Notes under the pieces: model-generated | Databases searched by the model: none | What the model was told of the DNA's origin: nothing | The model's input: the letters and a program-made list of their open reading frames with translations, nothing else | From: Archaeoglobaceae archaeon | GTDB lineage: Archaea; Halobacteriota; Archaeoglobi; Archaeoglobales; Archaeoglobaceae | Length of the DNA: 32,024 nt | Assembly (NCBI GenBank): GCA_015520485.1 | Contig: WAPX01000006.1 | Span: 1 to 32,024, forward strand | Reading direction: 5' to 3' | Program-made: the position numbers and the translations under genes | Shown here: positions 22,413 through 31,886 of the stretch, one piece after another | How the letters are laid out: the number at the start of each line of letters is the position of its first letter | Numbering within the stretch: position 1 is the stretch's first letter

Positions 22413-23045
22413 TTATTCCTCCAGCATCAACATACCTTTACCAGAGAGTACATACACTACGCCTCTGCCCACCTTCCTCTCTTCAAGGTAACCGGCATTA
22501 ACAAGCTTTTTTAAAATTCTATAGGTTGTTGTTCTCGATTTTCCGATTACTTCAGCAAATTCGTCCAGCTTTACTTCACCGATCTCTGCTGCTTTCCTTA
22601 GAATTCTTCTATCGGACTCATCTATTGGTTCTGGTTTAAAGAAATCTTGAGTAAGGGTTACAATATTTTCGAGATTTTCAGTTTCGAGTTCAATTAAAGC
22701 ATTTTTGTTGCTGCTCAACACTGCAGCCAGAGTTATCAAGATTAAAGCTCTCATGCCTCCCGAAAGATTTGCAATTAGCTCGCACTCGTGCTTTGAAATA
22801 ATCTCTCTAATTTTATGCTTTGCAAACTCAGGGTTTGATACATCAACTTCAACGATTTCAATGTTTTCAATCCCTGCGTAGTTTTTCAGTATGTCGAGCA
22901 AAGTTTTCAGGGCTTTTTCTGCTTTTTCGACGAGTGGTGAAGCTGTAATTATGGCAATTACATCATCAGGTTTTGGTGCATACCTTAGAATACCTCTGAC
23001 AGCAAACTTTTCGTCGAAGCCGAGGGTTAGTAGGATTAGCCGCAT
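22413..23045 (-). CDS. csa3: Csa3, CARF-HTH regulator of the type I-A locus
   Basis: 210 residues. Residues 1-130 form a CARF (Rossmann-like) domain with LTLGFDEKF at its start and NLSGGMRAL (93-101) as the nucleotide-binding loop. Residues 140-205 form a MarR-like winged helix (FAEVIGKSRTTTYRILKKLV). Csa3 proteins sense cyclic oligoadenylate and control cas gene or adaptation expression in archaea. The ATG overlaps the cas3'' stop by ten bases. Being inside the operon it may regulate, it suggests feedback control. Candidate binding sites near the csa5 promoter are listed separately. Confidence 0.9.
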   Translation of the reverse strand: MRLILLTLGFDEKFAVRGILRYAPKPDDVIAIITASPLVEKAEKALKTLLDILKNYAGIENIEIVEVDVSNPEFAKHKIREIISKHECELIANLSGGMRALILITLAAVLSSNKNALIELETENLENIVTLTQDFFKPEPIDESDRRILRKAAEIGEVKLDEFAEVIGKSRTTTYRILKKLVNAGYLEERKVGRGVVYVLSGKGMLMLEE

Positions 23046-23737
23046 AAAACATCCCTTGGAACATTTACAGGTATCCAGTATTTCTGCTCTCTTTTTCCAT
23101 CTTTATTTCTATTTTTACCCGCTGCAAAATCGTCTCCGCGAAGAATGGGGTGGAGAATCGAAACTGAGAATACATAAATCATCAAATTAGTACTACGCGG
23201 ATTTACACCTTTTTCAAAAAATTCTCTAAGTGTCTTTTCTGCCTCCTCAAATGTTACAATTTCAGGAAATTCGACATTAACACCAGCAATCTTTGCGAGT
23301 TCTTTACCGTCTACCTCCAATGACACTTTATTAGATCCTATTATATCTGGAATTCTGTAAAATCGACGGAAAATTTCGTCATGGTTTGTTCCAGACATCG
23401 TGTGATGGTGGTAAAGTATCGCGATGGTGAAGGGCAAGTACTCAATTCCAAAAATTTTGTGGAAAATTACAGCTGAATATATTTCGTGCCCAAACGCTGA
23501 ATCTCCGCGTTTAATTCTACTTTGGTAGGGTTCGTAAGCCTTGGCGATATCGTGTAACCTTGCGGCGTTAATGAGCATATCTTTAATGATTTCCGCAGAA
23601 TAGCACATTTTACGAGAAAGCATAACGTGGTAATTCCGTTTAATGTAGTGTTCCTCAATGAAATTTACACATTTGTCCACGTGCTCTTTAAGTGTTTCTA
23701 TTATTTCGCCCTTTTTGAAGGCGAGAATGTCATCCAA
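23036..23737 (-). CDS. cas3'': Cas3'', HD-domain nuclease
   Basis: 233 residues. This is the separate HD nuclease of type I-A systems, which degrades the displaced target strand together with Cas3'. The motifs are EH (18-19), His62-Asp63 in RLHDIAK, His84 in GHE, and YHHH (109-112). The start is a TTG inside an overlap with the cas3' stop (TTGGATGA), with GGAGGTGGG at good spacing. No other in-frame ATG lies ahead of the HD motif except internal Met39 and Met44. Confidence 0.92.
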   Translation of the reverse strand: MDDILAFKKGEIIETLKEHVDKCVNFIEEHYIKRNYHVMLSRKMCYSAEIIKDMLINAARLHDIAKAYEPYQSRIKRGDSAFGHEIYSAVIFHKIFGIEYLPFTIAILYHHHTMSGTNHDEIFRRFYRIPDIIGSNKVSLEVDGKELAKIAGVNVEFPEIVTFEEAEKTLREFFEKGVNPRSTNLMIYVFSVSILHPILRGDDFAAGKNRNKDGKREQKYWIPVNVPRDVLCG

Positions 23738-25304
23738 TAATACCCACCTCCTTTCTGTAGGCTGATGGATCCACGCTAATCCATTCGAAACGACCCTCTA
23801 GCAACAGTTGTTCGAGATACTTCCCGTTTTTGACGAATATCTCCAGAATTTTATCATCAATCATTATTTGTGCCTTCTTATTTTTTATGAGGTTAAATAC
23901 AATTTTCGAAGTAAGAGGTATGGCGTTCTCTCGACTCTTCGCTCCCACGTAACACGGCATGATTACGTTGCCCCTCGTAAAACTGCCAACGACTTTCAGC
24001 ATCTTCAAAGCTTCACGTGAACTCCACGGTGTGGTGATTAATCTCATAAATTCGGGATCGTATCTTGCCCCTATTCTATTTCTATGAACATTGTTAAGTA
24101 ACTTGGAGTATCCGTTTTCTACATCAGGTAACTTCCAGTTTATGTCTACATATTCTCCGTTCTTACGATTACTGAGAAAACTACAAGTCTGATTCACCAA
24201 ATCCTCCGAATATGGCTTCGCTTCAACGTCTTTAACGATGTACATTTCTCCGCATTCATCTGCGTACCTTGCGACTCTACCAGATCGTTGAATTAGCGAC
24301 GAAGCCGGGCATGCGTCTGTAATTAAAACATCAGCCGAAATATCAACTCCCGCTTCTACGACTTGCGTTGAGACGCAAACCCATTTATTTTTGTTTAGAA
24401 GTTCAGACACCTTGTTCTCTCTGTCTTTTTGCCTGAACCGTGAGTGCAGTAAGATAGGATTGTAGTCAGAAAGTTTCTCGTAAATTTCAACTGCCCTTTT
24501 CACCGTGTTTACCACGATTAAAACTTTGTCGAAGTTTCCTTCCTTAACGATTTCCGAAATCTGATTGTTATCAATTAACTTCGTTTTCAAGTTAATCGAA
24601 AGTCTTTCGTTTCTGAAATTTTTATCTTTATCTGAACTGTATTCAACGATTTCAAAATCTTTCACTCTATCTCCAACCCTTCTCAAAGCATTCAACACGT
24701 TTTGAGGAAGGGTTGCACTCATCAAAATTACCGGTGTTTGCATCTTCAGCAACGCTCTTATCATGGTAAAAAAGTATCGGATTACTTTATCAGCCTTTTC
24801 TTCGTTCAGGAATAGATGTACTTCGTCGAAAACGTTAAGCGAGTTAAAAATTGAACCTCTCGAAAGCTCGTAATGTCCGTAAAAATCTTCCAGCATTTTC
24901 ATTTCAATTGGTGGCAACTTGGCTAAATACAGTGAATACGTGTCGATGGTAGTGAAAGAAAGAGGTTTCAACAAAAATTGGGAACTATGAACAAACATCA
25001 TTTCCGCACCATAAATATCCTCATGAATGCCTACTTTTTCCAATCCGTTTGCGAGGGATTTTGTGGCACTCTCGACTATCGCTCTCATTGGCAACACGTG
25101 AATGCTTCCGCAGAATTTTTCCCATGAAAAAATGGAATAGATTCCCGCCGAATACACTACGGCAGTTTTTCCGTATCCAGGTGGGGCTGAGAATATAACT
25201 GGCTTCAACTGTTCAATTTTTTCGAGTACTTCTGAAACTAATGGTCTTTCAATTCGCCCTTTGAAAAATCCCTTCTTAACGAGCCTCGAATAAATCTCAG
25301 ACAT
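23730..25304 (-). CDS. cas3': Cas3', DExH helicase
   Basis: 524 residues from the ATG at 25304. This is the ATP-dependent helicase that unwinds DNA recruited by Cascade. Walker A is APPGYGKT (40-47), motif II is DEVH (160-163), motif III is MSATLP, and motif VI is QRSGRVAR. An upstream ATG at 25421 is open but would overlap csa4 by 125 bases and adds a basic, unfamiliar N-terminus. The chosen ATG overlaps the csa4 stop as ATGTCTGA, which fits the coupled style of the operon. The start remains a judgement. Confidence 0.92.
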   Translation of the reverse strand: MSEIYSRLVKKGFFKGRIERPLVSEVLEKIEQLKPVIFSAPPGYGKTAVVYSAGIYSIFSWEKFCGSIHVLPMRAIVESATKSLANGLEKVGIHEDIYGAEMMFVHSSQFLLKPLSFTTIDTYSLYLAKLPPIEMKMLEDFYGHYELSRGSIFNSLNVFDEVHLFLNEEKADKVIRYFFTMIRALLKMQTPVILMSATLPQNVLNALRRVGDRVKDFEIVEYSSDKDKNFRNERLSINLKTKLIDNNQISEIVKEGNFDKVLIVVNTVKRAVEIYEKLSDYNPILLHSRFRQKDRENKVSELLNKNKWVCVSTQVVEAGVDISADVLITDACPASSLIQRSGRVARYADECGEMYIVKDVEAKPYSEDLVNQTCSFLSNRKNGEYVDINWKLPDVENGYSKLLNNVHRNRIGARYDPEFMRLITTPWSSREALKMLKVVGSFTRGNVIMPCYVGAKSRENAIPLTSKIVFNLIKNKKAQIMIDDKILEIFVKNGKYLEQLLLEGRFEWISVDPSAYRKEVGIIG

Positions 25305-26478
25305 TGAGTCCGTAGAGAATTGCCTCAAATTCTCTTCCTCCATCTCCGCGAAAAAGCCAATGTCCTCTTTTTCTTTTTTTATATGATTGCTCGCATGCTT
25401 TCTGCGAAAGTTCTCTACCAAAGAAGTAAATCATGTCATAGACATCGTGGGATTTGTGTATAGCGTCGTAAAGCATAAACGCCGCTCTCTGGTATTTATC
25501 GACTTTACCTCTCCCGCTCGAAACAAGGCGTATGATTTTTTCTAAAGCCTCTTCGAGTTGTGTGCGTTCGGATAAATCTTCACCGAGTTTTTCGTTGTAG
25601 TATTTAAGGTATCTTGCAGCAAATTCGAATATCTGCGAGAAGTTCTGATCAATCTGAGACGTGAGTGTGAAAGTATTTCTTTGTCTGGAAATCTTGTAGA
25701 TTGTCAAATTGAATGTTGTTAGGGGGTCAAAGAAGATCTTAAATTCCCTACGCATATACTCTCTAAGAGTCGAAAGGGTAATTAAGATTACATACGCCTG
25801 AATCGGATCACTTCCAGAAACTTTGAGTGAATTCATAGTAAACTCGTCATAAATCCCGACATCGCAACTGAAGTTCTCCTGTGGAACGAGTATTATTACG
25901 TTCTGATTGAAGTATCCTGAATACGAGAAGGAAAAACCTGAAAGTAGTATTCCAAGCCAAACATCGTTAACGTAATACCTGTAACTGAAGTTCGTGAGGT
26001 TAGACCTCATAAATCTGCTTGCTGATGAGTACTTTTCCACTCCAAACATCTGGAAGAGTGCTATTTTCCCATTGCCATAGTACACCTTATCCCCCTTTGC
26101 TTTAACGTGGGCAGTACTCTTGACTTTGTCAATATTCAAATTGTTTGCCAGCGATTCACAGAACTTTATCGTAAACTGGCAGCAGTACTCCGAAAAAACA
26201 TCAACACCGTTCTTTTTCAGACTGTTGAGGTCGTTTCTATGAAGTTTTATGTCTCCGGGCTTGTTATTTAACTTCCTCTCCATAATCTCCGCCGCTTTTT
26301 CGAAAGTGTCCGCGAGTGCGTCGAGCAAATCTTCATAGTTGCAGTCGGCAATGAACGAATCTCCTTCGAAGTAATATTCAGCATCTCGTATTCGGAGGTT
26401 GCTACCCAATCGCAGGAAAAATGCAGTTGAAAGACCTCTCATCAAAGTCCCATAAGATGGTAGGGGGATCCTGATCAT
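25297..26478 (-). CDS. csa4: Csa4 / Cas8a2, large subunit of type I-A Cascade
   Basis: 393 residues. Identification rests on position between cas5 and cas3', length and a general likeness to Csa4. The family has few invariant motifs. The N-terminus MIRIPLPSYGTLMRGLSTAF and an all-alpha C-terminal third fit a Cas8a large subunit, which recognises the protospacer-adjacent motif and non-target strand in other type I systems. The ATG overlaps the cas5 stop as ATGA, with GGTG before it. A divergent Cas8a1 is the alternative. Confidence 0.75.
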   Translation of the reverse strand: MIRIPLPSYGTLMRGLSTAFFLRLGSNLRIRDAEYYFEGDSFIADCNYEDLLDALADTFEKAAEIMERKLNNKPGDIKLHRNDLNSLKKNGVDVFSEYCCQFTIKFCESLANNLNIDKVKSTAHVKAKGDKVYYGNGKIALFQMFGVEKYSSASRFMRSNLTNFSYRYYVNDVWLGILLSGFSFSYSGYFNQNVIILVPQENFSCDVGIYDEFTMNSLKVSGSDPIQAYVILITLSTLREYMRREFKIFFDPLTTFNLTIYKISRQRNTFTLTSQIDQNFSQIFEFAARYLKYYNEKLGEDLSERTQLEEALEKIIRLVSSGRGKVDKYQRAAFMLYDAIHKSHDVYDMIYFFGRELSQKACEQSYKKRKRGHWLFRGDGGREFEAILYGLNV

Positions 26479-27215
26479 ACTATCACCACATCTTCCCCAT
26501 CTGTAAGAACTTTCATCCCTTCAACTTCAACTCTCACTTTTTCAGCCCTCTGCTTTCTTGTACTGTATGGAACGTTCAACGGGATTTTGTCGGCATTAAC
26601 GTAGTCACCAATTGGGGATTTTCTAAAATCAACTACATCAAAAGAAATTAAATTACCGCTACGGAGTTTTACGTATCCAGTGAAATAGTAATCTGTTTCT
26701 ACCACGCTACAATCCACAGAACTTGCTTTTTTCAGCTTAACGCTCTCAACACTTACAGTAGATTCTTTGGAACCTATCCTCGATATGCCCCATGCTGCAA
26801 GCTTTAGAGTGTTTAGATCACCAACTATACGCTCTGCCTCACTCTCGTCAACAACATATATGACATCGATACTACCATCACTAGACAAACTGTAAACTTT
26901 CTCAAGCGACACAGCATCACTCTGAACGACTTTTTCTTCCTTTCTGTACCAAAATACTCTCGTTAAATCCCCATATTTGATTACTGGAACATTTATCCTT
27001 GCATTTACTGAAATAAACATTTTCCTATATCTATCGGCACTGCTAATTTCACCATCGTTTTCAGGAACTTCAAGTAAGATGTTAAGGGGATAGGCTAAAG
27101 CTCCAATGAATGTTGTTGGTGGGGGAAATAGCAATGCTGGCTTTGACTTACTGAGTGGCACCACTCTTAAGGCATATCCCCAGTGCGGCTGGATAGAAAC
27201 TTTCAAGAAGTACAT
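26475..27215 (-). CDS. cas5: Cas5, type I-A Cascade subunit
   Basis: 246 residues. This RAMP protein caps the 5' handle of crRNA in Cascade. The N-terminal strand FLKVSIQPHWGYALRV and the following PPPTTFIGALAYPL segment are typical of Cas5a. The C-terminal half is beta-rich. The start ATG lies 13 bases inside the end of cas7, so translation is coupled. Nothing is missing compared with the usual length. Confidence 0.88.
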   Translation of the reverse strand: MYFLKVSIQPHWGYALRVVPLSKSKPALLFPPPTTFIGALAYPLNILLEVPENDGEISSADRYRKMFISVNARINVPVIKYGDLTRVFWYRKEEKVVQSDAVSLEKVYSLSSDGSIDVIYVVDESEAERIVGDLNTLKLAAWGISRIGSKESTVSVESVKLKKASSVDCSVVETDYYFTGYVKLRSGNLISFDVVDFRKSPIGDYVNADKIPLNVPYSTRKQRAEKVRVEVEGMKVLTDGEDVVIV

Positions 27216-28231
27216 ACCTTTTCTATTACTTTCTTTATCAATTCTTCCGGCGTGCTTGCCTCCTCATCAGCCTCTGCGTTGTAGCCTATGATGCTGATTG
27301 ACTTGTTCAAGCCAAGCTCATTGTACAGACTAACGACGCTTTTCTTTCTTTCCATCGTTTTTACGTCGTATTCTGGATAAACCGGTGATGAAACCATAAA
27401 CGGCAAATCAGAAACACTTGCAACCATATCTGTGATTTCTGCTACTGGCAGAAACCTCGTTCTTTTCCCTCCAAAGTCGTAAAGTGTCATTTTTAGAGCT
27501 AGTAGAGCGACTTTTTTCCTTTTTTCTATTTCTTCATCATCCAGTACTTTTTCAACAGTTGTCATTGACGTGTAACCGATGCCACTGAGGTTTATGTTAA
27601 AAAGCAAAGCGTATACTGCTGATGATAGCTCGACATAGTATATCATCTGTGCAGCTCTATCAACAACTCTCTCCTCTGTTTCTTTTCCTTTCATAGTTTC
27701 CGATGGTGCGTGCCTTGCATGGAATTGTGTTTCTGTCACGGCAGCATTGATTGTTTCAACCGTTGGAACTATATAGCCAACCTGAAATAGTGATGTTCTT
27801 CTCACTGGTGGGTCCTCAGCATGTAAAAAGCCACCAATGTCTTCGACAAGGCAGCTTTTTATGATTGCCGCTTCGAACTCTTTTTTGTACTCTGGAACTT
27901 TTTCTTTTTTGACTTTGCCTCTCTTCTTCCACACTTCTGAAATCCTATCGTCGATGTGGTCTTTATCCATATGCTTGTAAAATTCTCCAATCCTACACCA
28001 CTTGCAAACTGGTGGCAAATCATAAATCACTTCAGCCGCTCTTACAAGGTTCTCCTGATATGCATGTCCAAAACTTTCTCCACTTATAGCTGGAACCCAT
28101 TTCACGCTGTACCCATTCTCGCTTCTAATAACCACGGGAGCTCTCCTGTGTTTAGTGACGTTGCCAACAGTCTCAACCATGTTCAATGCTTCGAGGTTTG
28201 CTACAAATCTAACGCCTACAGACACGAACAT
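27203..28231 (-). CDS. cas7: Cas7 (Csa2), backbone subunit of type I-A Cascade
   Basis: 342 residues. Multiple copies form the helical backbone that binds the crRNA spacer. The N-terminus FVSVGVRFVANLEALNMVET and the segments VPAISGESFGHAYQE and RRTSLFQVGYIVPTVE are characteristic of Csa2/DevR-like Cas7. An internal Cys76-x2-Cys79 pair may help fold an insertion. GAGGTGAG precedes the ATG by four bases. The gap from csa5 is only four bases. Confidence 0.92.
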   Translation of the reverse strand: MFVSVGVRFVANLEALNMVETVGNVTKHRRAPVVIRSENGYSVKWVPAISGESFGHAYQENLVRAAEVIYDLPPVCKWCRIGEFYKHMDKDHIDDRISEVWKKRGKVKKEKVPEYKKEFEAAIIKSCLVEDIGGFLHAEDPPVRRTSLFQVGYIVPTVETINAAVTETQFHARHAPSETMKGKETEERVVDRAAQMIYYVELSSAVYALLFNINLSGIGYTSMTTVEKVLDDEEIEKRKKVALLALKMTLYDFGGKRTRFLPVAEITDMVASVSDLPFMVSSPVYPEYDVKTMERKKSVVSLYNELGLNKSISIIGYNAEADEEASTPEELIKKVIEKVCTS

Positions 28232-28235
28232 GTTC

Positions 28236-28598
28236 TCACCTCGTTAAATACGTAAATGCCAAAGCCGAAGCAATCCTACAAATTCTCAAATCCTTAGCAG
28301 CCGAATCCAAGAATTTTTGAATTACGTCCGAAGGAGGTACGTATGGCGTAATGTTGTATTCCTTACCTTTTGAATCTATGTACACTTTTTTTCCGTCTTC
28401 CTTAGTTCTAACATTGCCCATACCTGCTTTACTTTCTCTCAGAGCTTCGTATATTGTCCTTTCGACGATTTCTATGTTGTACGTGTTTGATAGTCTGTCT
28501 ACGTAACCATAGTTACCAAGCTCAACAAAAAATCGTAACATTCTGGCTATCTCTTTTGCAACACCCCACTCTTCATCAGAAAGTTGTTTCTGTTGCAT
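28236..28598 (-). CDS. csa5: Csa5, small subunit of type I-A Cascade
   Basis: 120 residues, largely helical with a short beta insertion. This is the type I-A Cascade small subunit (Cas11a), which helps hold the displaced strand. The assignment rests on size, position directly ahead of cas7, and the LRICRIASALAFTYL end. It is the first gene of the operon. The TATA box at 28621-28628 is about 27 bases upstream of the ATG and no ribosome binding site is present, so the mRNA is probably leaderless. Confidence 0.85.
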   Translation of the reverse strand: MQQKQLSDEEWGVAKEIARMLRFFVELGNYGYVDRLSNTYNIEIVERTIYEALRESKAGMGNVRTKEDGKKVYIDSKGKEYNITPYVPPSDVIQKFLDSAAKDLRICRIASALAFTYLTR

Positions 28599-28620
28599 AC
28601 ACTTACACTATTCAGACTCA

Positions 28621-28628
28621 TATTTATA
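28621..28628 (-). promoter_or_regulatory. TATA box of the cas operon
   Basis: On the minus strand this reads TATAAATA, preceded by A-rich sequence fitting a TFB recognition element. Its centre is about 27 bases from the csa5 ATG, which predicts a leaderless transcript for the whole cas operon. Confidence 0.75.
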
Positions 28629-28645
28629 ATTTTCTATTTGCTTAG

Positions 28646-28666
28646 AATGTAGATTCATTCCAAAAT
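28646..28666. promoter_or_regulatory. Degenerate operator-like inverted repeat upstream of the cas promoter
   Basis: The right arm (28657-28666) is ATTCCAAAAT, identical to the right arm of the perfect palindrome at 29055-29075. The left arm matches six of ten bases, and the centre base is the same. It lies about 16 bases upstream of the csa5 TATA box. Another left-arm-like sequence (ATTTCGGAATCAT) sits at 28695-28707. These are candidate sites for the antitoxin or for Csa3. Confidence 0.5.
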
Positions 28667-28703
28667 GAGTTAAATTAATCTGTCTTATACCACTATTTCG
28701 GAA

Positions 28704-29000
28704 TCATAATCTACCGTACATCTTATGTGCTTGCTCGATTGTCATTATATCAAGTATCTTAACGACTCTTTCGTCCTCAATAATTCTGTAAAAAACAGTG
28801 TATGACCTAGCAATATGCATGCGATATAACTCGTAATCTGGTAAGTTCAACTTCTTTTTGCTTCCTCCCCTCTCTGGATACGGATTATCCCTTAAAGTTT
28901 TGAGTTTTTCTCTTACGATTCTTTGACTTTTTTCAGGAAGATTCCCTATGAACTTCTCAGCTTTTTTACTTATCAAAATCTTCCACGGTTGAAAATGCAT
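28704..29000 (-). CDS. RelE/ParE-family toxin
   Basis: 98 residues with the compact RelE fold. It opens with a beta strand (WKILISKKAEKFIGNLPEK), has a central helix-rich part ending in LRDNPYPERGG, and then strands typical of the family: YRMHIARSYTVFYRIIEDERVVKILDI. RelE toxins cut mRNA on the ribosome, and ParE relatives poison gyrase. Sequence alone favours RelE. A TATA-like AATTTAAATA at 29021-29030 lies about 27 bases before the ATG, so the toxin may have its own leaderless promoter in addition to read-through from the antitoxin gene. Confidence 0.85.
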   Translation of the reverse strand: MHFQPWKILISKKAEKFIGNLPEKSQRIVREKLKTLRDNPYPERGGSKKKLNLPDYELYRMHIARSYTVFYRIIEDERVVKILDIMTIEQAHKMYGRL

Positions 29001-29054
29001 ATCAGCATTATATCATAAGATATTTAAATTTTTCCACTAAATACATTTCATTAG

Positions 29055-29075
29055 ATTTTGGAATCATTCCAAAAT
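29055..29075. promoter_or_regulatory. Perfect 10-bp inverted repeat (operator candidate)
   Basis: ATTTTGGAAT (29055-29064), one C, then ATTCCAAAAT (29066-29075) form a perfect palindrome. It lies just past the antitoxin stop and about 25 bases upstream of the predicted toxin TATA box. Ribbon-helix-helix or winged-helix dimers bind such sites. Confidence 0.7.
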
Positions 29076-29077
29076 AA

Positions 29078-29263
29078 TTAGAATATTAGTTCAACAAACT
29101 CTTCTTCCTCTTCGATCTTTTTCATGTCTCTAACTAACTTACGCTTCTTCTCCCTATCTAAAAGTTCAATCAACAAATCGTTGAATGTCTGGTTTGGTTT
29201 CTTTAATGCCTGTAGCTCCTTCCATACTTCTTCTGAAACAGAAATCTTCTTAGTTGCACTCAT
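29078..29263 (-). CDS. Antitoxin, VapB/UPF0330-like
   Basis: 61 residues from the ATG at 29263. A TTG at 29281 would add six residues. The N-terminus KKISVSEEVWKELQALKKPN is the strand-helix opening of archaeal VapB-type (UPF0330/DUF217-like) antitoxins. It is followed by a second helix and a highly charged tail rich in Glu that would mask the toxin. This antitoxin group usually partners VapC PIN-domain toxins, so pairing with a RelE-like toxin is notable. A TATA-like GAAAATTTAA at 29291-29300 would give a leaderless mRNA. Confidence 0.8.
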   Translation of the reverse strand: MSATKKISVSEEVWKELQALKKPNQTFNDLLIELLDREKKRKLVRDMKKIEEEEEFVELIF

Positions 29264-29329
29264 TGTAGTTTTTTGATTCAAGCGGATAGTTAAATTTTCT
29301 CCTTTTAGTTTTCTGTCCTCTATCCCGCA

Positions 29330-29720
29330 AGCTCAAGTTAGCACTCCAATAATTATAGAATGCTACAAAACTCTCCAACCAGCTCTGCACCATTCAAAAG
29401 AATTTCTATAATGGGCATCTTAGTCTTCTCCCTAACCTTCTACGGCATTCACCAAATGTTTCATGCCTGTACTTTTACCACTTTGCCACAGATACAATAA
29501 TGCGTCATCAACTACTTCTGGCTTATTTTCACAGTACTTTAAGACTTCTTTCAAAAGAACGTAAGCCATGAAAGGGGCTTCTTCCTTCAGAAGTGTCCAT
29601 ATAGTAAGACTTTCCTTTGTATCAATCTATAGCTGCCCATACGAAGATTAGCTTTCTTTTAATATCCTCTTTTCACCTCCTCATTGTCCGTTGTTAAAAC
29701 AACGACACCACTGATCGGCT
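29330..29720 (-). pseudogene. Decayed IS6-like transposase, second copy
   Basis: On the minus strand, in shifting frames, pieces of the same transposase as at 3-312 can be read in order: an NEEVKRGY segment near 29665-29690, FVWAAID near 29632-29650, AYVLLKEVLKYCENKPEVV near 29520-29570, a degenerate stretch around 29420-29500, and WLESFVAFYNYW near 29345-29385. Frameshifts and stops are frequent, so it is inactive. It fills the otherwise gene-free stretch between the toxin-antitoxin pair and the CARF gene. Confidence 0.8.
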
Positions 29721-29790
29721 CAGCTACTCCATCGATGAATGCCGTTATTACTGGCGGGATTTAGGTCGAGAGGGGCTATTACGGAGGTTC

Positions 29791-30558
29791 TTATTTTAGC
29801 TCCTCAGCCACTCTCCACAAATTCCACATAAGCTTCCCTATTGACGTAATTTCGTAGCCTCTAACTTCACCACGTTCGCCGTGAATTGGCTGTATCAAAT
29901 GATTTTTCAATAGCAATTCATCTGCTTTTCTTACATCATATATTCGCCCACTTTGTGTCTGGATGAAAGGTTCAAGTTTTTCCATGACATCTTTTTTCAG
30001 CATTATCGGAAATGGCGGAATTTCCACAACGTCTCCAATAATCTCATGCCTATAGTATGTCGGAATTCCTAAAGTAGAGCCAATAGCAACAAGCAAAGAG
30101 ACTTCAGGTTTGAGACCACCAGTAGCATTGAAGTATATCTTCCTGTCTTTCCAGCTTTTTACTTTTTCCGCAACTGTTTTCAGGAATTCTACTAATCCCT
30201 CATAGAAGTCACCACCCCTTACATTGTAACCTCGTACACGCTTTACGTGAACATCTATTCCCTTTTGTCTAAGGACTTGTTCAAGAACTCTTCCACATAA
30301 CTCGCACTCATCCGTGTCTGTTAGAATCAGATACGCCTCATCAATTTGAACGTCAAACTTTTCTAAGTAGGAGTAAAGTGCATTTAGTTCTGCTGATGCT
30401 TTTTTCGGGTCTTCACTAACGAAAGCAACGAGTTCGCTGACAAACGTTCTGTCATGTAGAAGTCTGCCTATGTCCAGTTGTTTTTGGTCTATACTGTTTT
30501 CTCTACAATAATTCGTCAATATGCTCGTTCCTACCGAGATTATATGGCTGTGCTTCAT
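29791..30558 (-). CDS. CARF-domain protein, APE2256-like; possible ring nuclease
   Basis: 255 residues. The N-terminal CARF domain opens with HIISVGTSILTNYC (5-18) and has the second nucleotide-binding segment NATGGLKPE (144-152). These match the Cas_APE2256/TIGR02619-type CRISPR proteins. Residues 185-255 look like a winged helix (ADELLLKNHLIQPIHG, then YEITSIGKLMW). Related Sulfolobus CARF proteins (Crn1) degrade cyclic tetra-adenylate, so this may switch off type III signalling or act as a regulator. GGAGGTGATAAT is an ideal ribosome binding site, four bases after the preceding gene. CARF assignment is firm, enzymatic activity is inference. Confidence 0.82.
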   Translation of the reverse strand: MKHSHIISVGTSILTNYCRENSIDQKQLDIGRLLHDRTFVSELVAFVSEDPKKASAELNALYSYLEKFDVQIDEAYLILTDTDECELCGRVLEQVLRQKGIDVHVKRVRGYNVRGGDFYEGLVEFLKTVAEKVKSWKDRKIYFNATGGLKPEVSLLVAIGSTLGIPTYYRHEIIGDVVEIPPFPIMLKKDVMEKLEPFIQTQSGRIYDVRKADELLLKNHLIQPIHGERGEVRGYEITSIGKLMWNLWRVAEELK

Positions 30559-30562
30559 ATTA

Positions 30563-31060
30563 TCACCTCCATTTTACTTCCTCAAAGAAAGACAGGAGCA
30601 GGAATAGATTAAGATACAAGTTCCTTAGATATTTCAGACTCATAGCCGCTTTAGGGGGTGTGAACTTACTAATCGCAGAAAGTACATCCTCGAGCTGGTA
30701 GATATAATCCAAAACATCGTCTGTAGAAACACCAATCAATGCTATTTCATTTTGAAGTTTTTCATCTTCCTCACTTTCCACTCTTTTTTTGATTAATTTT
30801 ATATTATCATACAACAAATTTGTTAAAAAATTATGGTGAGATGACAGAATTTCAGCTATCTTCTCAGCTGTATACCCACCAAGATCAATTGGTTTGAAGC
30901 GATGTGACAAAGGAGAGACGTTTCTCAACCTTTTGAATTCTTTTGCTTCTCCCCACTTACTTGTTAAATGTAACAAGCTTTTTCTTTGGTCTTGCTCGAG
31001 TTTAAATAGATTGTCTACGTCAAATATATTTCTAGCAGTCAACCTAATTGTTTCCCACAT
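30563..31060 (-). CDS. Helical protein of unknown function next to the CARF gene
   Basis: About 165 residues from the ATG at 31060, preceded by AGGGG. A TTG at 31123 and an ATG at 31081 are longer alternatives. The protein is almost all alpha, with a long charged coiled-coil-like region near the middle (YDNIKLIKKRVESEEDEKLQ) and a hydrophobic C-terminal helix. Its start lies inside the 3' end of the preceding gene and its stop overlaps the CARF gene's ribosome binding site, so it is coupled on both sides. I do not recognise a family. Its size resembles small helical CRISPR subunits (Cas11-like), but no motif supports this. Confidence 0.65.
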   Translation of the reverse strand: MWETIRLTARNIFDVDNLFKLEQDQRKSLLHLTSKWGEAKEFKRLRNVSPLSHRFKPIDLGGYTAEKIAEILSSHHNFLTNLLYDNIKLIKKRVESEEDEKLQNEIALIGVSTDDVLDYIYQLEDVLSAISKFTPPKAAMSLKYLRNLYLNLFLLLSFFEEVKWR

Positions 31061-31886
31061 TAGTGCCCCTGTTGTATCCATAAGTATAGAGAATAGCTGA
31101 AGAGATATGAGTTTTTTTGCCAAAAACCAGCCGAGAAATTACATGAATTGCTAGCATCAGGAAATCCTTAATTAGTCTTTCAGACCTCTCCAAAAATTCT
31201 GAAAAAATAGATATTTTACTTATTTTTGATTCAGAAAGTTCCTCTACTTTATTTAATGTTTCAGCAAGTTCAAGAAAGAAATCCAAAATCTCTTCTATTT
31301 TATCCACTGTAGATGTCACTAATTCTGAGTATTCGGATACACTATCTCCACTCTTGAGTTTCTCTAATCTAGTTTTGGATTCCTTCAATCTTGTTTGAAA
31401 ATCCTTGAAAAAATCTCCCTCTAGCCTATTCTTTACGAAAATCTCAGAATCTGTAAAATAATCCATCAGCCTTCCGAGAGGATAAAGACAACCTATTGCT
31501 AACCAAGCACAAGGTGCGTTATTTACTACGTCTAAAATTTCTTTTTCTTTAAACTTTCTTAGTGGCACAAGAGTATACGAAATCTCTTCAATACTCAACT
31601 TAATTCGCTTAAACTCATGAAGTAACAATATTACAAATACCGGATACTCTTCTACAATATATTCTTCTTTCTCTTCATCATCTATTCTTTGAATCCTTCT
31701 TTCTATCTTAAAATATGTGGCCTTTAAATCAAGTTTGAAAATAACATCTACGCTTTCTGAGCCGTTTAAAATTTCTATTAGTTTTTCAATGTTCTCGATC
31801 TCGACATGCTCATAGTCTTTTTTAAGAAAAAGTTTACCTTCTCTAACTTCAAACCTGGCCCCAGAATCTAACACAATAACAGTCAT
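31044..31886 (-). CDS. Unknown protein in the CARF operon
   Basis: 280 residues, no family recognised. Residues 1-110 are beta-rich and start with TVIVLDSGARFEVREGKLFL, faintly like the N-terminal beta domain of Cas1, but without the catalytic residues that would support it. Residues 120-280 are helical, with a charged heptad-like stretch (about 165-245, rich in Leu, Lys and Glu) suggesting a coiled coil. The ATG overlaps the preceding stop as ATGA. The C-terminus runs past the likely start of the next gene in another frame. The two could be pieces of one frameshifted gene or independent partners. Confidence 0.7.
   Translation of the reverse strand: MTVIVLDSGARFEVREGKLFLKKDYEHVEIENIEKLIEILNGSESVDVIFKLDLKATYFKIERRIQRIDDEEKEEYIVEEYPVFVILLLHEFKRIKLSIEEISYTLVPLRKFKEKEILDVVNNAPCAWLAIGCLYPLGRLMDYFTDSEIFVKNRLEGDFFKDFQTRLKESKTRLEKLKSGDSVSEYSELVTSTVDKIEEILDFFLELAETLNKVEELSESKISKISIFSEFLERSERLIKDFLMLAIHVISRLVFGKKTHISSAILYTYGYNRGTNVGNN

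What the first reader, a model, noticed from the sequence alone, without database searches (positions are those of the whole stretch)
28599..29300. Toxin-antitoxin pair and type I-A cas operon appear to share an operator
A perfect palindrome (arms ATTTTGGAAT and ATTCCAAAAT) precedes the RelE-like toxin. A copy with an identical right arm lies just upstream of the csa5 TATA box, and a left-arm-like sequence lies at 28695-28707. Both downstream genes have TATA boxes predicting leaderless mRNAs. One regulator, the antitoxin or Csa3, could control both interference genes and toxin, so that loss of Cascade or cA signalling changes toxin dose. This would be a protein-based analogue of addiction modules that guard CRISPR loci.
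Basis: partly seen in the sequence, partly recalled or inferred. Interest (0 to 1): 0.65.

Follow-up and report, generated by a model that had tools for sequence, protein, structure and literature searches.

The report
Toxin promoter resembling CRISPR cas promoter
In an uncultured heat-loving archaeon, a toxin gene that is normally fused in one operon with its antitoxin has gained its own promoter carrying the same rare DNA switch as the neighbouring CRISPR interference operon, so toxin and immune genes may be turned on and off together; this is seen in one genome only and no binding has been tested.

Summary
The sequence observation holds. A perfect 21-bp palindrome (29055-29075) lies upstream of the aRelE/ParE-type toxin's own TATA box, and a 16/20 copy (28646-28666) lies upstream of the csa5 TATA box. 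In 271 kb of this genome, only those two sites and one inside a coding gene match 16/20 or better. Among 246 other upstream regions the best is 14/20. The two promoters align better than either does with any of 115 other promoters.

In relatives with a clear antitoxin partner, antitoxin and toxin genes overlap or abut; only the window has a 77-nt gap holding a promoter. Several relatives carry a different antitoxin-proximal repeat (TTTACAA...TTTACAAT), which the window lacks. The pair therefore looks rewired. The same antitoxin family also sits beside near-identical csa3 genes (87-89%) in two other Archaeoglobales loci, intact in one and decayed in the other.

Best reading: one regulator, most likely Csa3, acts on both promoters. 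No relative of the pair or of csa3 carries the motif, so comparative support is missing. Promoter duplication without shared control remains possible. An RNA-guided (CreTA-like) guard is not supported. The addiction interpretation is untested.

The parts
29055..29075 (.). Perfect 21-bp palindrome ATTTTGGAATcATTCCAAAAT, -75 to -55 of the toxin ATG
   Evidence: unique in genome within 2 mismatches
29020..29030 (-). TATA-like box of the toxin promoter, centred 25 nt before ATG (leaderless)
   Evidence: sequence
29001..29077 (-). 77-nt intergenic promoter segment between antitoxin and toxin; absent from TA relatives with an identifiable antitoxin, where the genes overlap or abut
28704..29000 (-). 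Toxin, 98 aa, ParE_toxin family (PF05016), solved relative aRelE PHS013 (1WMI)
   Evidence: 68-72% identity to Archaeoglobales relatives
29078..29263 (-). Antitoxin, 61 aa, VAPB_antitox family (PF02697), probable ribbon-helix-helix
   Evidence: fold not confirmed
28646..28666 (.). Palindrome copy upstream of csa5 (right arm identical, 16/20 overall), -68 to -48 of the csa5 ATG
28621..28629 (-). TATA-like box of csa5, centred 27 nt before ATG
   Evidence: sequence
28695..28707 (.). Left-arm-like sequence ATTTCGGAATCAT overlapping the toxin stop; with 28650-28666 forms an imperfect inverted repeat/RNA hairpin (z -2.3)
28236..28598 (-). csa5 / cas11a, first gene of the type I-A interference operon
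   Evidence: PF09702; Cas11a
23036..28231 (-). rest of interference operon: cas7 (27203-28231), cas5a (26475-27215), Cas8-position protein (25297-26478), cas3' (23730-25421), cas3'' (23036-23737)
22413..23045 (-). csa3: CARF + winged-HTH regulator, candidate binder of the shared motif; cA4 motifs LGFDEKF and SGGMR present
   Evidence: motifs per PMC8844856
21516..22409 (-). cas6
29791..30558 (-). CARF7 protein, Crn1-type ring-nuclease relative
29346..29658 (-). decayed DDE transposase remnant upstream of the antitoxin

Best explanation
A mobile ParE/RelE toxin-antitoxin pair settled beside a csa3-bearing type I-A locus and was rewired. The usual overlapping antitoxin-toxin operon was split by a ~77-nt segment with a leaderless promoter, and the antitoxin-proximal TTTACAA repeat seen in several relatives is not present. 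The new toxin promoter carries the same operator, in the same place just upstream of BRE/TATA, as the csa5 promoter. One transcription factor, most likely the CARF-wHTH protein Csa3 encoded in the cas operon, would bind both as a dimer, so toxin output follows Cascade output and possibly the cA4 signal. I favour co-induction on infection (dormancy coupled to immunity) over an addiction guard. Shown: genes, motif, positions, statistics, the break in TA architecture. Inferred: binding, regulator identity, sign of regulation, physiological effect.
For: Palindrome unique within 2 mismatches. csa5 copy 16/20 against a maximum of 14 in 246 upstream regions and 0/3000 shuffles. The promoter pair aligns at score 50; each against 115 other promoters reaches at most 38. 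Motif-to-ATG distances are 68 and 75 bp. In 17 of 19 relatives an antitoxin ORF overlaps or abuts the toxin, and none of the 19 has the palindrome. A different repeat, TTTACAA, lies near the antitoxin start in several relatives: 14 TTACAA/TTGTAA seen against 1.2 in shuffles over all relatives examined; absent in the window. Csa3a of Sulfolobus protects -81 to -42 with an imperfect palindrome next to BRE/TATA (PMC4333418), and Csa3b has a mapped site on the csa5 promoter (PMC7480081). Csa3 keeps its cA4 motifs and the genome has two GGDD Cas10 proteins. The same TA family adjoins 89% identical csa3 and a 66% identical cas6 in L018, and a decayed antitoxin (72% over 200 nt, E 2e-20) lies directly before cas11a in L054, whose csa3 is 87% identical.
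Against: The motif was found in one genome only. L054, with 87% identical Csa3, has at best 15/20 upstream of its operon, tied with a site inside a gene. L018 has no match in its 3.9 kb, although its cas operon promoter lies off the contig. No site scoring above 15/20 lies near this genome's cas1, cas10 or array loci. The known Csa3a site sequence differs. Outside the motif the two promoters are only modestly similar (p about 0.01-0.02 with fixed register; not significant in local alignment).
Confidence: 0.42

Rival explanations
1. Duplication footprint without shared control: the csa5 promoter, perhaps including the start codon, was duplicated around the toxin gene by a recombination or insertion event, and the similarity is inherited rather than selected. 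The pair is a passenger in a variable defence region.
For: The toxin gene is flanked by direct repeats (40 nt, 75%, 409 bp apart); the alignment continues through TATA to ATGCA. Decayed transposases and decayed TA copies show a fluid region. TA pairs inside cas cassettes are common in Sulfolobales (PMC4390879).
Against: Identity is concentrated in a 12-bp core and TATA while the rest has drifted, which suggests selection on the core; a perfect 21-bp palindrome at the toxin site is not expected from a neutral copy of the imperfect csa5 site.
Confidence: 0.25
2. The antitoxin (probable ribbon-helix-helix) binds the palindrome and thereby controls both its toxin and the cas operon.
For: Type II antitoxins commonly bind the promoter region of their own operon (PMC12737573); antitoxin and toxin flank the site.
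Against: The site is not in front of the antitoxin. Several relatives, including two with 62-64% identical antitoxin, carry a different repeat before the antitoxin. None has this palindrome.
Confidence: 0.13
3. Another host transcription factor binds both sites, independent of CRISPR or TA proteins.
For: Rare palindrome with no protein assigned; a 3-mismatch site exists elsewhere.
Against: The elsewhere site is inside a coding gene and half-sites show no promoter bias, so no wider regulon is visible.
Confidence: 0.1
4. RNA-level element: the inverted repeat at 28650-28714 is a 3' hairpin of the toxin mRNA and the palindrome a hairpin in an antitoxin-toxin transcript, both acting as terminators or stabilisers.
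For: Both fold better than most shuffles, z -2.3 and -1.9.
Against: Weak z-scores; one arm is toxin coding sequence conserved in relatives; does not explain the match between the two promoter sites.
Confidence: 0.07
5. CreTA/CreR-like RNA guard: the motifs are degenerate CRISPR repeats making a crRNA-like regulator.
For: Weak resemblance to Archaeoglobus-type repeats (the A. fulgidus repeat is from memory).
Against: This genome's repeat is GATAAAATCAGACCATAGTGGGATTGAAAG; local scores of the sites (10-16) are within the window background, 95th percentile 16, maximum 21.
Confidence: 0.03

Closest known systems
Csa3a/Csa3b control of type I-A cas promoters (Sulfolobus)
   Same: CARF-wHTH Csa3 encoded with type I-A genes; Csa3a site is an imperfect palindrome just upstream of BRE/TATA, at -81 to -42 (PMC4333418); Csa3b site on the csa5 promoter (PMC7480081)
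   Different: Here a toxin promoter carries the motif as well; the sequence differs from the published Csa3a site; binding not shown
CreTA / CrePA toxin guards of CRISPR-Cas
   Same: A toxin tied to the presence or activity of a type I CRISPR effector
   Different: No crRNA-like antitoxin or repeat found; any link would run through a protein operator, and a protein antitoxin is also present
Type II ParE/RelE toxin with PF02697 antitoxin (archaeal)
   Same: Protein families and gene order
   Different: Gene overlap lost, TTTACAA repeat absent, toxin has its own promoter
vapBC and other TA pairs interspersed in Sulfolobales cas cassettes (PMC4390879)
   Same: TA pair embedded in a cas locus, proposed to help retain it
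   Different: No shared operator is described in the text I read

Membership tests
Type II toxin-antitoxin, ParE/RelE superfamily | toxin of the family next to a protein antitoxin | tested here: met
   PF05016 E 1e-7 and PF02697 E 4e-9; aRelE 1WMI
Type II toxin-antitoxin, ParE/RelE superfamily | usual layout: antitoxin and toxin in one overlapping operon (typical of the family, not strictly required for membership) | tested here: not met
   77-nt gap with its own promoter in the window; no TTTACAA repeat
Type II toxin-antitoxin, ParE/RelE superfamily | toxin inhibits growth and antitoxin neutralises it | not testable with these tools
   needs expression assay
Csa3 regulon | palindromic site just upstream of BRE/TATA of a cas promoter | tested here: met
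   -68 to -48 of csa5, an imperfect palindrome; position compared with PMC4333418
Csa3 regulon | site conserved where near-identical Csa3 occurs | tested here: inconclusive
   L054 at best 15/20; L018 lacks the operon promoter
Csa3 regulon | Csa3 binds the site | not testable with these tools
   needs shift or footprint assay
CreTA / CreR | degenerate CRISPR repeats of the host array flanking a guide | tested here: not met
   no repeat-like match above background in 28560-29790
CreTA / CreR | toxin repressed by Cascade with a crRNA-like guide | not testable with these tools
   needs RNA and genetics

The most novel reading that the evidence does not exclude
A protein-based coupling of a toxin to CRISPR immunity: a cA4-responsive CRISPR regulator (Csa3) controls both the type I-A interference operon and a toxin that was detached from its antitoxin operon, giving either infection-triggered dormancy or an addiction guard of the cas locus.
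Probability: 0.2. Interest if true: 0.8.

Novelty: new variant of a known kind. Interest (0 to 1): 0.48.

Why it matters
If one CRISPR regulator drives both Cascade and a toxin, it would be a direct, testable case of the proposed coupling of immunity with dormancy or suicide (PMC3506569), built from a protein operator rather than from crRNA-like guides. It would also show how a generic mobile toxin-antitoxin pair can be recruited as a CRISPR accessory by a promoter change of under 100 bp.

Tried and rejected
CRISPR-repeat origin of the motif: not above background. Motif as a general genome or transposon element: half-sites are rare; three background copies lie in a decayed transposase with a similar stretch, but the homologous remnant in the window is elsewhere (29346-29658), so I treat that as chance. 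Viral origin: no exact palindrome in the viral contig collection. Close relatives of the cas operon in GTDB: none by Cas7. Other Archaeoglobales type I-A loci: csa3 and csa5 are divergent with another promoter and no such motif. Palindrome hits with up to 3 mismatches in 22 of 57 Archaeoglobales genomes look near chance: only the window has 0 mismatches, none lies at the TA or csa3 loci discussed, and the reversed control gives some too. Antitoxin fold by AlphaFold and Foldseek: two helices, no significant match. An early first scan used a pattern without the central base and so found nothing.

Full report
WHAT IS THERE. The window is a whole contig (C6, 32,024 bp) of a 1.57-Mb archaeal genome; named relatives found with its Csa3 are an Archaeoglobales MAG and a Geoglobus MAG. 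On the minus strand, in order of transcription, lie a CARF7 ring-nuclease relative (29791-30558), a decayed transposase (29346-29658), an antitoxin (29078-29263, PF02697), a toxin (28704-29000, PF05016; solved relative aRelE 1WMI), then csa5, cas7, cas5a, an unassigned Cas8-position protein, cas3', cas3'', csa3 and cas6.

THE OBSERVATION. The perfect palindrome ATTTTGGAATcATTCCAAAAT is at 29055-29075 and is unique in the genome within 2 mismatches. In register with it, 28646-28666 upstream of csa5 matches 16 of 20. In 271 kb of this genome only three positions reach 16: these two and one inside a coding gene. Among 246 other upstream regions the best is 14, and none of 3000 shuffles of the csa5 upstream region reaches 16. 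The half-site occurs ten times genome-wide, three of them here. TATA-like boxes lie 25 and 27 nt before the two start codons, as expected for leaderless messages.

PROMOTER SIMILARITY. The 119-bp upstream regions of toxin and csa5 align with score 50; either against 115 other promoters reaches at most 38. Among 6555 random promoter pairs one reached 50 or more. Most of this comes from the motif. The rest of the promoter is similar at p about 0.01-0.02 in fixed register and not significant in local alignment. The data therefore show a shared element in a shared position, and only suggest a duplicated promoter.

THE TOXIN-ANTITOXIN PAIR HAS BEEN REWIRED. A profile of the toxin finds relatives in 86 of 393 genomes of the phylum sample, so the family is ordinary and widespread. 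Of the 19 other loci fetched, 17 have an identifiable antitoxin ORF that overlaps or abuts the toxin; 4 nt is the commonest overlap. L125 and L130 gave no clear antitoxin by this test. None of the 19 has the palindrome; the best match near any of them is 13/20. The window alone has a 77-nt gap with its own promoter. Several relatives (L121, L122, L124, L129, L137, L138) carry TTACAA-type repeats close to the antitoxin start, often at -22 and -13: 14 occurrences against 1.2 in shuffles. Others (L126-L128, L131-L136) lack the exact hexamer. The window lacks it too. The palindrome is therefore unlikely to be the inherited antitoxin operator.

ASSOCIATION WITH csa3 LOCI. Only two other genomes in the phylum sample have a close csa3, at 87-89% identity. 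In one (L018/L053, 89%) the order is csa3, ATPase fragment, antitoxin, toxin, cas6. In the other (L054, 87%) a frameshifted antitoxin remnant, 72% identical over 200 nt including its promoter, lies directly before the cas11a gene of a type I-A operon. Three further close toxin relatives (L015, L016, L017) are not next to recognisable cas genes. The link is thus recurrent but not obligatory.

WHO BINDS. Csa3 is the best candidate by position and context: Csa3a protects -81 to -42 next to BRE/TATA with an imperfect palindrome (PMC4333418), and Csa3b has a mapped site on the csa5 promoter (PMC7480081). The window Csa3 has both cA4 motifs described in PMC8844856, and two Cas10 proteins with GGDD are encoded. 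Against this, L054 with near-identical Csa3 has at best a 15/20 site upstream of its operon, tied with a site in a gene, and no site above 15/20 lies near other cas loci of the genome. The antitoxin is a weaker candidate. No binding data exist.

SIGN AND FUNCTION. If Csa3 activates, infection signalling would raise Cascade and toxin together while the antitoxin keeps its own promoter: dormancy coupled to immunity. If Csa3 represses, loss of the cas operon, which contains csa3, would release the toxin: an addiction guard. Upstream-of-BRE placement resembles the activating Csa3a site, so I lean to the first, without strong evidence; the Sulfolobus Csa3b acts as a repressor on the csa5 promoter (reviewed in PMC11640852), so the opposite sign is quite possible.

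LIMITS. The motif is known from one genome. No close relative of this cas operon was found in the collections searched, so conservation could not be tested fairly. Statistics are post hoc, since the site was noticed before it was tested. The genome background is a sample of about 271 kb.

Noticed in passing
window 29346-29658 and 20-466: Decayed DDE transposase remnants; related copies on C8, C49 and C53 contain a stretch resembling half the palindrome (codons for KRFWNRF).
   Followed up: partly
window 30563-31886: Two ORFs (186 and 280 aa) upstream of the CARF7 gene without any family match above cut-off.
   Followed up: no
window 25297-26478: Protein in the Cas8 position matches no Cas8 model in PADLOC, NCBIfam or Pfam.
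   Followed up: no
L121, L122, L124, L129, L137, L138 upstream of the antitoxin: Putative operator repeat TTTACAA...TTTACAAT near the start of PF02697 antitoxins in part of this toxin-antitoxin family.
   Followed up: partly
L054 5884-7649 with L018 5-1581: Nearly identical csa3 and similar cas8 3' ends attached to otherwise divergent cas cassettes, suggesting module swapping at csa3.
   Followed up: no
L144 3726-4390: Probable HEPN-MNT toxin-antitoxin pair inside a Cas10-containing (type III) operon of the same genome; judged from sequence only.
   Followed up: no
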